Assembly: GCA_021784575.1 (NCBI GenBank) | Contig: JAJYHX010000003.1 | Coordinates: forward strand, 124,001-188,000 | Length of the DNA: 64,000 nucleotides | Direction: 5' to 3' | Origin: Nitrospirota bacterium | GTDB taxonomy: Bacteria; Nitrospirota; JACRHJ01 | The notes under the pieces: model-generated | Told to the model about the DNA's origin: nothing | Databases searched by the model: none | What the model saw: the letters and a program-made list of their open reading frames with translations, nothing else | Program-made: the position numbers and the translations under genes | In this document: positions 6,449-9,433 of the stretch, piece after piece | How the letters are laid out: every line of letters starts with the position of its first letter | Position numbering within the stretch: position 1 is the stretch's first letter

Positions 6449-6493
6449 ATTATTTTCTATTTCCCCGTAACTTCTCAGCTTCTTAACCAGGAA

Positions 6494-6697
6494 CTATGGA
6501 GTTATAGTTTTTTTCTTGGTTCCCTCCCAAACCAGAGCATTTTCCCTGGTTTTTGCTGCGCCAACTTTGACAATATGGCCATTCGGCCATCTTTGCTGAT
6601 GTTCTTGTTCTCTCCGGTCAAGGTCATTGGTAATTCCACTATGAACGATTTTGTTGCCGATTTTGAAATCATACGTAAAAGTATCTCTCTTTTTCAT
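6494..6697 (-). CDS. small GIY-YIG-like protein
   Basis: A 67-residue protein with the core of the GIY-YIG fold: an N-terminal strand pair (TYDFKIGNKIVHSGIT, where the second half corresponds to the YIG strand) followed by a helix NDLDRREQEH that carries the conserved Arg and Glu region of UvrC or SLX4-type nucleases. The first GIY motif is degenerate. The start at 6697 is supported by AAAGGAG a few bases upstream. The gene follows, by 16 bases, the one interrupted by the insertion element, so the two were probably one transcript. Base composition is clearly more AT-rich than the flanking chromosome. Nuclease activity is not certain because the domain is minimal. Confidence 0.65.
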   Translation of the reverse strand: MKKRDTFTYDFKIGNKIVHSGITNDLDRREQEHQQRWPNGHIVKVGAAKTRENALVWEGTKKKTITP

Positions 6698-7055
6698 ATC
6701 ATCTCCTTTCAGTTTATATATTATTCCATATTGTCATAAAAGATTGCGCCTCGCCGAGTAAAAGAATATTCAAATCAGATAACGGCGCATTCGGTACAAT
6801 TAATTTGGAGTTCATCACATCTAAAATACCCATGACAGAATTTTTCTTTGCATGTGTCTTTAGTGTATTGTCCATAAGAAAGAGAACCATATCAACTCTG
6901 GATTTTGAAAGACTATCGTCTTTAAAATAAAGTTTGATTATGTGCGGAACATTATCAATCATTAATCCTAATTCCGGATTAACACTAACTTGCAAGCCTG
7001 CGTTATTCCAATGTTCATTTGGAGGATCAAACCATTTTACGTTTTTTCTTCCTAA

Positions 7056-7063
7056 AAATTTTT
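7056..7063. repeat. left 8-bp target-site duplication
   Basis: AAATTTTT immediately before the left inverted repeat, identical to 9048-9055 after the right inverted repeat. Eight bases is the duplication length known for IS1595-family elements. Confidence 0.85.
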
Positions 7064-7086
7064 CGGAATGTCCCAGTTTAAGGTAG
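7064..7086 (+). repeat. left terminal inverted repeat of the IS
   Basis: Begins CGGAATGTCC and ends AAGGTAG; pairs with 9025-9047 read on the minus strand with three mismatches, all in the inner half. Confidence 0.85.
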
Positions 7087-7131
7087 CAGGGCAAGTAAGG
7101 TAACAGAGGAACAACAGTTCCCCGCTTCCAC

Positions 7132-8100
7132 TTACATCTCTTTATCGAACATGTCTTCTGTAAAAGGTTGCCCCATCAATCGGGCATAGGCATTTTCAAA
7201 ACGCCTTTTATTCGCCGAGATTTTTAGCGTTCCTACGACCTGCCAAATCATTGCTCTAAGGGCCTTTAATCCCTTCTCTTCGTTCAAGAGCGAATGATGC
7301 CTCTCTTTTCTTCTGCCCCCCTTCGAGGGGTTTCTTTTGTCCAGTTCTTTTAAAACCAATCCTTTTTCAACGGGGTCATAGATGTATTTTCTGGTAAAAG
7401 TAGCATAATATAAAGGTCTATTGCGCGAGGTGGTCTTTTCGTTCCCGTAAATACGATCCAGTTGGGCATATAATTCATCCGGAAACTCTTTAAACCATTT
7501 TCTTACGTCGTCTGCAAAATAACTTTCAATTAACATTCTGAGAGCTTCGGGGTTTTTGTATCTTTCAAACCCCAGCCTCTCATAAATTAAAGCAACAATT
7601 CCTACCCTCGCAAAAGAACGAATCAATATTTCACACTTTTGCGCTATCGGAAGTTGATTCGGAGTCAAGGCCCTTGCTTGCCGTGCCTCCAAATAGACAT
7701 TGCAAACGAGCGGAAGAATATCGGCATGGTAACCAGAGGTTAAAACAGAACCATCATAAAATTCAATGCCTTTTAATCGTTCTAATAGTTCGGGGGATTT
7801 TTCAACAAATGGCCGCAGGTTTGCGGCCCCAATAAAAGTAGGCAACTCATCTTTCTTATATTGTCCCTTCCACGGGCGACCGATTGCCTTCATCATCTTA
7901 GCACTGTTTAAAACGGCGGTTCCATCTTCCAAGATGTAGCAATCCAATTCTATATCATAAAATTTAACAGGGCCTTTCCCCCATACTTTCAAAGGTTTTT
8001 TTGAAGATTTAATCTCTGTACCGCCTCCCTTGATTTTTGGGGGTTGATTACCAGTTTTTCCTTCATTTTCCAATGGATTATCTACTGTACCAACTTTCAT
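7132..8100 (-). CDS. P63C-domain protein, IS passenger
   Basis: A 322-residue protein inside the insertion element. Residues ~40-100 form a segment with VWGKGPVKFYDIELDCYILE and RPWKGQYKKDELPTFIGA, and the middle contains ILPLVCNVYLEARQARALTP, which resembles the P63C domain found in phage proteins and some insertion elements. The C-terminal part is helical and basic (NPSKGGRRKERHHSLL), suggesting nucleic-acid contact. Its ATG overlaps the transposase TGA (ATGA), so it is translationally coupled to the transposase. Because it lies within the inverted repeats it moves with the element. Its role in transposition, if any, is unknown; a DNA-binding accessory is inference. Confidence 0.7.
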   Translation of the reverse strand: MKVGTVDNPLENEGKTGNQPPKIKGGGTEIKSSKKPLKVWGKGPVKFYDIELDCYILEDGTAVLNSAKMMKAIGRPWKGQYKKDELPTFIGAANLRPFVEKSPELLERLKGIEFYDGSVLTSGYHADILPLVCNVYLEARQARALTPNQLPIAQKCEILIRSFARVGIVALIYERLGFERYKNPEALRMLIESYFADDVRKWFKEFPDELYAQLDRIYGNEKTTSRNRPLYYATFTRKYIYDPVEKGLVLKELDKRNPSKGGRRKERHHSLLNEEKGLKALRAMIWQVVGTLKISANKRRFENAYARLMGQPFTEDMFDKEM

Positions 8101-8960
8101 GCCATACCCCCTAACGCTCTGGTTATCGTTTCCTCGAAAACCATGTCGTTCTTGCGGTTATTGTGGCGATAGCAGAATTCGTCAACGTATTTTTGAAGAT
8201 GCCGGATGCTTACCTTGTGATACTGACCAACAAGACCGCGCTTCAACAAGGCCCAAAAACCTTCAATGTTGTTAGTGTGAATGTCCCCGTCCGAATACCA
8301 CTTGCTATGATTTATCGTCTGATGTTTGACGAACTTTGAAATGGGGAGATACCCCGTAAATTCGTCTGTGATAACCGTTGCGGTCGAAACGTCAATATTC
8401 TCTCTTATCATGGACATGAGAGTTTTTGCGGATACGTTTTTGACGACCTTTGCCCTTACCTTCCCGTCCCGCTCTATCGCGCCGACAACCGGGGTCTTGG
8501 AAGTTCCACGGCCTCTCTTGGCCGGGCCGCCGTCCTCTCCGCGCCTTTTCTTGCCGCCGACGTAGGTTTCGTCAACCTCAACAATTCCCTCTAAAAGCTC
8601 CCTATCGTCTGTCATGGCCTTTCTAATTCGCATTGCCATATACCAGGCTGTGTTCTTATTCACTTCCAAATCACGGGCAAGCTGACGGGCGGATACGCCC
8701 TTTTTCGCATTCAGTATGATAGTAATAGCCAAAAACCACTTTTGAAGGTCTATCTTTGTCTTATGGAATATCGTGCCGACGGTAACACTGAAAGAGGTAT
8801 TACAGTTATTGCAATGATGCCGGGATTCCTTCGGCATCGGGGTTACATTAGTGGACTGGCAGTATGGACATTTCGGTTGGCTTTTCCAACGGACTTCTTC
8901 AAGATATTCAAGGCAATCGACTTGACGGGGAAACCTCTTATAGACTGATACGATATTCAT
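8097..8960 (-). CDS. IS1595-family transposase (ISXO2-like DDE)
   Basis: A 287-residue transposase. The N-terminus has a zinc ribbon (CPYC near residue 32, then HHCNNC) that recognises DNA ends. It is followed by a helix-turn-helix-like segment (SARQLARDLEVNKNTAWYMA) and the ISXO2 catalytic domain: VDETYVGGKK with the first Asp, VITDEFTGYL with the second, and HTNNIEGFWALLKRG near the C-terminus with the third acidic position. All catalytic segments are present and the frame is open. AAGGGGG lies before the ATG at 8960, downstream of a good promoter at 8984-9012. It should cut and paste the surrounding element using the 23-bp inverted repeats. Confidence 0.92.
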   Translation of the reverse strand: MNIVSVYKRFPRQVDCLEYLEEVRWKSQPKCPYCQSTNVTPMPKESRHHCNNCNTSFSVTVGTIFHKTKIDLQKWFLAITIILNAKKGVSARQLARDLEVNKNTAWYMAMRIRKAMTDDRELLEGIVEVDETYVGGKKRRGEDGGPAKRGRGTSKTPVVGAIERDGKVRAKVVKNVSAKTLMSMIRENIDVSTATVITDEFTGYLPISKFVKHQTINHSKWYSDGDIHTNNIEGFWALLKRGLVGQYHKVSIRHLQKYVDEFCYRHNNRKNDMVFEETITRALGGMA

Positions 8961-8983
8961 TACTGCCCCCTTTCGTTACTACC

Positions 8984-9012
8984 AGTATATAGGGCGGTAT
9001 TTTATTTGTCAA
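8984..9012 (-). promoter_or_regulatory. transposase promoter
   Basis: Minus strand: TTGACA (9012-9007), exactly 17 bases, then TATACT (8989-8984). It is entirely inside the element, about 35 bp from the right end, and points into the transposase gene. Confidence 0.75.
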
Positions 9013-9024
9013 GAGAAAAATTGA

Positions 9025-9047
9025 CTACCTTTAAATAGGACATTCCG
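9025..9047 (-). repeat. right terminal inverted repeat of the IS
   Basis: Read on the minus strand it starts CGGAATGTCC and ends AAAGGTAG, matching the left end at 20 of 23 positions. Confidence 0.85.
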
Positions 9048-9055
9048 AAATTTTT
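9048..9055. repeat. right 8-bp target-site duplication
   Basis: AAATTTTT immediately after the right inverted repeat, identical to 7056-7063. Confidence 0.85.
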
Positions 9056-9335
9056 TATAGCCGGCTATCCTGGAAGGATAGTGCTTTGCCCTCTTCGCAT
9101 CTTTCTGTTTAGTTGCGTTATCTAATAACTTCTTATTTGAAGAATCTGCTTTATGGTAATCAACGATAGCTTCTCTCAAGTTTTTCCAAAAATCACTGGC
9201 TGGCGAATATTCTCCCCGGCCTTTAATTTGTTTTACCTTTGTTAATTTAGGAGTTCCAGATTTTATTACAAAATCTACAAAATCTGTAAGCGATATTTTG
9301 GTCATAAATTTTCCTCCTTCTAAATTAAGTTTATT

Positions 9336-9363
9336 TATATACCAATATATAGCGCTTCGTCAA
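9336..9363 (-). promoter_or_regulatory. promoter of the IS-split gene
   Basis: Minus strand TTGACG (9363-9358), 16-base spacer, TATATA (9341-9336). It precedes the AAGGAGGA ribosome-binding site and ATG at 9305. It probably also served the downstream GIY-YIG gene before the insertion. Confidence 0.5.
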
Positions 9364-9433
9364 GATAAAAATACTACATATCGCGTTGAAAAAGTATCTT
9401 CCACTCCACAGGTACTAACGGCGTTTATTTACG

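What the first reader, a model, noticed from the sequence alone, without database searches (positions are those of the whole stretch)
7056..9055. Complete IS1595-type element splitting a gene, with restorable reading frame
The 8-bp duplication AAATTTTT, 23-bp inverted repeats and an in-frame join (GYKKF-LGRKNV) on removal were all read directly. The element carries an intact transposase and promoter, so the interruption may be recent and possibly reversible.
Basis: seen in the sequence. Interest (0 to 1): 0.68.

Follow-up and report, generated by a model that had tools for sequence, protein, structure and literature searches.

The report
Two-gene IS1595 transposon with P63C partner
A complete jumping gene sits inside a small accessory gene of this bacterium, and it belongs to an apparently undescribed group of IS1595 elements that pair the transposase with a phage-type protein (P63C) which is kept in the same slot but repeatedly swapped for a different version.

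Summary
A 1,984-bp IS1595-family element lies at 7064-9047, with 8-bp repeats AAATTTTT and 18/23 matching ends; the flanking frame joins to 199 residues.

This pair is not a one-off. In one supported clade 11 of 12 sampled transposases carry P63C in the same place, against none of 43 others. Four more complete elements have perfect 8-bp duplications; some carry restriction-modification or antitoxin-type cargo beyond P63C.

Transposase and P63C trees conflict strongly (p-AU about 1e-6 both ways), and the ends follow the transposase: the slot is kept, its occupant exchanged. A third copy of the end overlaps the -10 of the transposase promoter, suggesting self-repression.

The split gene has no homologue found and lies in about 1 kb of extra DNA absent from three congeners, where the flanking genes abut, so the damage is probably minor. 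Reversibility is unsupported.

P63C function is inferred only: weak structural resemblance to Bro-N-type DNA-binding proteins; outward-facing (exclusion/defence) or a transposition regulator. Novelty: new variant of a known kind.

The parts
7064..9047 (-). complete IS1595-family element, 1,984 bp, genes on the - strand
7056..7063 (.). 8-bp target duplication AAATTTTT, copy 1
9048..9055 (.). 8-bp target duplication AAATTTTT, copy 2
7064..7086 (+). inverted repeat at the P63C-side end, CGGAATGTCCCAGTTTAAGGTAG
9025..9047 (-). inverted repeat at the transposase-side end, CGGAATGTCCTATTTAAAGGTAG
8984..9012 (-). promoter TTGACA-N17-TATACT for the transposase gene
   Evidence: consensus match only
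8978..8998 (-). third, internal copy of the end sequence (15/21), overlapping the -10 hexamer, 17 nt before the transposase ATG; candidate operator
   Evidence: 2 of 2,000 shuffles as good; same feature in L005, L026, L052, L053, L032
8097..8960 (-). transposase, 287 aa, IS1595 family; conserved D130, D199, N230 (E233 present)
7132..8100 (-). P63C-domain protein, 322 aa, ATG overlaps the transposase stop (ATGA)
9048..9305 (-). 5' part (86 codons) of the interrupted accessory gene, with ribosome site AAGGAGG
6714..7063 (-). 3' part of the interrupted accessory gene
6449..9433 (.). stretch absent from three congeners (interrupted gene, a 67-aa ORF and the element), between an MBL-fold hydrolase and trpA

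Best explanation
SHOWN: 7064-9047 is a complete IS1595-family transposon that inserted with an 8-bp duplication into an accessory gene of unknown function. It belongs to a transposase clade whose second gene is almost always a P63C-domain protein, mostly joined to the transposase by a 4-nt stop-start overlap. The P63C occupant of that slot has been exchanged between elements, while transposase and ends stayed together. INFERRED MECHANISM: the transposase is made from the TTGACA-N17-TATACT promoter just inside its end, and binding of transposase to the internal end copy over the -10 limits its own synthesis. P63C is translated by coupling from the same message. It most likely acts as a small DNA-binding protein facing outward (against phages, rival elements or host regulation) and not as an obligate part of the transposition machine. 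Some relatives add more defence-type genes behind it.
For: Element and family. Second copy in kind: L026 (Chlorobiota) is also 1,984 bp, with duplication ATAATTAA and 23/24 ends. Further complete elements with perfect duplications: L052 TTAAAAAT, L053 TTCATCTT, L060 AAGGAGAT; L057 6/8 and L058 5/8. Clade: 11 of 12 transposases with P63C, 0 of 43 others, starred branch, 2 changes against 10.3 in shuffles. ATGA overlap in window, L005, L006, L032, L035, L036, L052, L055. Exchange: window transposase is nearest L005 (68%) whose P63C is 37%; window P63C is nearest L026 (68%), whose transposase is nearest L055 (74%) with P63C 34%. AU tests reject window+L005 in P63C (1.7e-6), window+L026 in transposase (1.2e-6) and L026+L055 in P63C. 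Ends follow the transposase. Internal end copy. Outward role: P63C lies directly 3' of cI in phage ST104, the rex position, and beside an Abi family gene on two plasmids; related elements carry BsaWI-type R-M, HsdR_N-methylase, ThsB-like TIR, Panacea. DNA-binding: best fold matches beyond P63 itself are Bro-N/KilA/repressor-domain proteins and DdrC. Purifying selection: L006-L036 P63C dN 0.13, dS about 2.6.
Against: P63C function is untested. The fold matches are weak (PDB best E=0.36; model pTM 0.52). No PADLOC model matches P63C. A conserved slot with translational coupling could equally mean a transposition role. Only 12 transposases define the clade, and L112 in it lacks P63C. Sampling was by sequence search from this element, so clade frequencies are not population estimates. 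The operator idea rests on sequence similarity alone; L055, L035 and L036 lack a clear internal copy.
Confidence: 0.7

Rival explanations
1. P63C is a transposition accessory or regulator: it binds the ends or the transposase, or controls the shared message, and so sets transposition frequency or target choice.
For: Constant slot beside the transposase, frequent 4-nt overlap, Bro-N-like fold suggesting DNA binding, 1,984-bp elements holding nothing else.
Against: Occupants are swapped between elements with different ends and transposases, unexpected for an intimate partner. Sister elements (L105, L106, L109-L111, L113) have no P63C. P63C also occurs without a transposase in phages and plasmids.
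Confidence: 0.3
2. P63C is a neutral hitch-hiker acquired like any passenger gene, with no role in the element's life.
For: IS1595-family elements and IS elements in general can carry passenger genes (established knowledge; cargo).
Against: 11 of 12 in the clade keep it, in the same place, under purifying selection, and when replaced it is replaced by another P63C, while the cargo behind it varies freely.
Confidence: 0.1
3. Ordinary reading: just one more IS1595 insertion that inactivated a gene, of interest for that gene only.
For: All hallmarks of an IS insertion are present.
Against: The split gene is accessory and orphan, and the reading omits the second gene and its clade-wide pattern.
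Confidence: 0.15

Closest known systems
IS1595 family of insertion sequences (seven groups named in PMC8101967)
   Same: DDE_Tnp_IS1595 domain, N-terminal zinc ribbon, 8-bp duplications, short inverted ends
   Different: PMC8101967 describes members as usually having a single transposase gene; here a second gene of constant type follows. Which of the seven groups it falls in was not tested (ISfinder not available).
P63C proteins of phages (named after Myxococcus phage Mx8 p63; phage ST104 orf23)
   Same: P63C domain over its full length; fold match to Mx8 p63
   Different: IS-borne versions lack the N-terminal KGG-ARA-LS-ER-EIA-AARW stretch or HTH seen in most free ones, and follow a transposase instead of a repressor gene.
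Bro-N / KilA-N phage antirepressor-type proteins
   Same: N-terminal strand-rich domain; several of the top 50 viral fold matches are Bro-N, KilA or repressor-domain proteins
   Different: No Pfam Bro-N or KilA-N match in any of 32 members; matches are weak, so this is likeness, not membership.
Transposons with defence cargo (for example Tn7-like, PMC8649781)
   Same: Related elements carry restriction-modification, TIR and antitoxin-type genes between their ends
   Different: Small single-transposase IS1595 elements, 2-4 kb; the window's own element carries only transposase and P63C.

Membership tests
IS1595 family | transposase with DDE_Tnp_IS1595 domain | tested here: met
   PF12762 E=2e-39, NF033547 222 bits over cut-off 75
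IS1595 family | N-terminal zinc ribbon | tested here: met
   PF12760 E=4e-9
IS1595 family | 8-bp target duplication | tested here: met
   AAATTTTT on both sides; 8 bp in four relatives
IS1595 family | terminal inverted repeats | tested here: met
   18/23
IS1595 family | usually a single gene | tested here: not met
   two genes; this is a usual, not an obligatory, feature, so membership stands
P63C protein family | P63C domain above Pfam cut-off | tested here: met
   72.5 bits against 26.1
Bro-N/KilA-N antirepressors | Bro-N or KilA-N domain by sequence | tested here: not met
   no match in 32 members at E<=1
known anti-phage defence systems | match of P63C to a PADLOC model | tested here: not met
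   none
transposition accessory protein | alters transposition rate or target | not testable with these tools
   needs an experiment

The most novel reading that the evidence does not exclude
A clade of IS1595 transposons spread over several bacterial phyla and phages keeps a dedicated, translationally coupled slot for interchangeable P63C proteins, which act as element-borne exclusion or anti-phage factors and make these small elements movers of defence genes, also into phage genomes.
Probability: 0.3. Interest if true: 0.75.

Novelty: new variant of a known kind. Interest (0 to 1): 0.5.

Why it matters
P63C is a widespread domain of unknown function in phages, plasmids and genomes. Its repeated, swapped pairing with a transposase gives a small natural test system: a 2-kb element with two genes, in which the role of P63C can be measured by deleting one. 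The swap pattern (slot kept, occupant changed) is the sort usually seen for genes under conflict. No paper in the held library mentions IS1595 together with P63C.

Tried and rejected
Homologues of the joined host protein: none in 148 relatives, plasmids or viral contigs, and no Pfam match for either half. Looking for the right end directly behind P63C in relatives failed because of further cargo; a longer search with the left end as probe found it. Close relatives of the window's P63C in viral contigs: none. PDB sequence search for P63C and transposase: nothing. Solo ends or MITEs in the genome: none. The two papers read on P63C only list it in prophage or insertion gene lists. The idea that P63C is plain passenger cargo was dropped. 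That the insertion is reversible was not adopted: nothing supports it.

Full report
OBSERVATION. The element lies at 7064-9047 with AAATTTTT at 7056-7063 and 9048-9055. Its ends match at 18 of 23 positions and are the longest inverted pair of the region. It is single-copy in the 2.1-Mb genome, without solo ends. The two flanks join in frame to a 199-residue protein with a strong ribosome site; element plus duplication is 1,992 bp, a multiple of three.

Between transposase (8097-8960) and far end lies a full gene, 7132-8100, with a P63C domain. Its ATG overlaps the transposase stop.

THE HOST SITE. In three species of the same genus the MBL-fold hydrolase and trpA that flank this stretch directly abut. 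So about 1 kb with the interrupted gene and a small ORF came in first, or was lost in the relatives, and the element sits inside it. The interrupted gene has no detectable homologue. That the flanks were one gene is inferred from frame, ribosome site and duplication. A date cannot be given; perfect duplications and open halves fit a recent event.

RELATIVES. The two nearest P63C genes in 84,980 species genomes (Chlorobiota L026, Bacteroidetes L027, 67 and 64%) both follow an IS1595 transposase, whole in L026 and broken in L027. L026 is a complete element of the same length with its own 8-bp duplication. Searches of the window's phylum and of viral contigs gave more pairs. A profile scan of all loci found P63C directly behind the transposase in one part of the set only. 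On the tree these form a starred clade of 12 with one exception (L112), and none of the 43 other transposases has P63C. A few of those 43 had little flank to look in (for example L108, 351 bases).

STRUCTURE OF THE ELEMENTS. With the left end as probe, right ends were found for L052, L053, L060 (perfect duplications) and for L057 and L058 (6/8 and 5/8, so less sure). Behind P63C the cargo varies: nothing (window, L026), small membrane proteins (L052), a BsaWI-type endonuclease and a DNA methylase (L053), a Panacea-domain protein with a small membrane protein (L057), a lipoprotein with a TbpB-type barrel (L060). Sister elements without P63C carry an HsdR_N-methylase protein (L111) or a ThsB-like TIR protein (L113). 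Several of the viral-contig copies sit next to phage head or tail genes.

EXCHANGE OF THE SLOT. The window's transposase is nearest to L005 (68%), but their P63Cs share 37%; its P63C is nearest to L026 (68%), whose transposase shares 57% and is itself nearest to L055 (74%) with P63C at 34%. AU tests reject the shared histories. The ends go with the transposase: CGGAATGTCC in window, L005, L052, L053; AATGTCATAG in L026 and L055.

CONTROL. The promoter begins 12 bases inside the end. A third copy of the end overlaps its -10 hexamer (15/21 in the window, 2 of 2,000 shuffles; 17/21 in L026, 0 of 2,000), close before the ATG. The simplest reading is self-repression by the transposase; this is inferred. 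Not all members show it (L055, L035, L036 do not).

ROLE OF P63C. A model from 32 sequences (mean pLDDT 76, pTM 0.52) matches phage P63 and, weakly, Bro-N, KilA and repressor-domain proteins and the DNA-binding protein DdrC (not significant). Free P63C genes lie directly behind cI in phage ST104, where lambda has rexA (established knowledge), and beside Abi genes on plasmids. The swap pattern, these places and the company of defence genes favour an outward-facing role; the fixed slot and coupling favour a role in transposition. I put the outward role somewhat ahead and call it inference.

KNOWN OR NEW. Membership in IS1595 is tested and met. A constant and exchangeable P63C partner is, as far as the held papers show, not described; passenger genes as such are known in IS families, and ISfinder could not be consulted.

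Noticed in passing
window 6449-9433: Whole stretch absent from three congeners, where MBL hydrolase and trpA abut; the element is nested in an older accessory insertion (or the relatives lost it).
   Followed up: yes
window 6494-6697 (-): 67-residue ORF beside the split gene inside the extra stretch; no Pfam match.
   Followed up: partly
L053:3905-7651: IS1595-P63C element in a viral contig next to a terminase gene, carrying a BsaWI-type restriction enzyme and a DNA methylase.
   Followed up: partly
L111:5001-8175 and L113:5001-6835: Sister IS1595 transposases followed by an HsdR_N-methylase protein and by a membrane protein plus ThsB-like TIR protein (PADLOC PDC-M50).
   Followed up: partly
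L057:504-3339: Element carrying a Panacea-domain (SocA-like) protein and a small membrane protein, looking like a toxin-antitoxin pair.
   Followed up: partly
L033, L034, L041, L050 and other free P63C loci: Free P63C proteins mostly begin with a KGG-ARA-LS-ER-EIA-AARW stretch, one (L013) with a YdaS/Cro-type HTH; IS-borne ones lack it.
   Followed up: partly
L138:3845-4924: Phage ST104 orf23 is a P63C gene directly 3' of cI, the position of rexA in lambda.
   Followed up: no
G000:C6:471128-471958: A second, distant IS1595-family transposase in the same genome, outside the P63C clade by score.
   Followed up: no
G000:C10:21120-21142: Lone site resembling the element's end (3 mismatches), without a partner found by the same search.
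   Followed up: no
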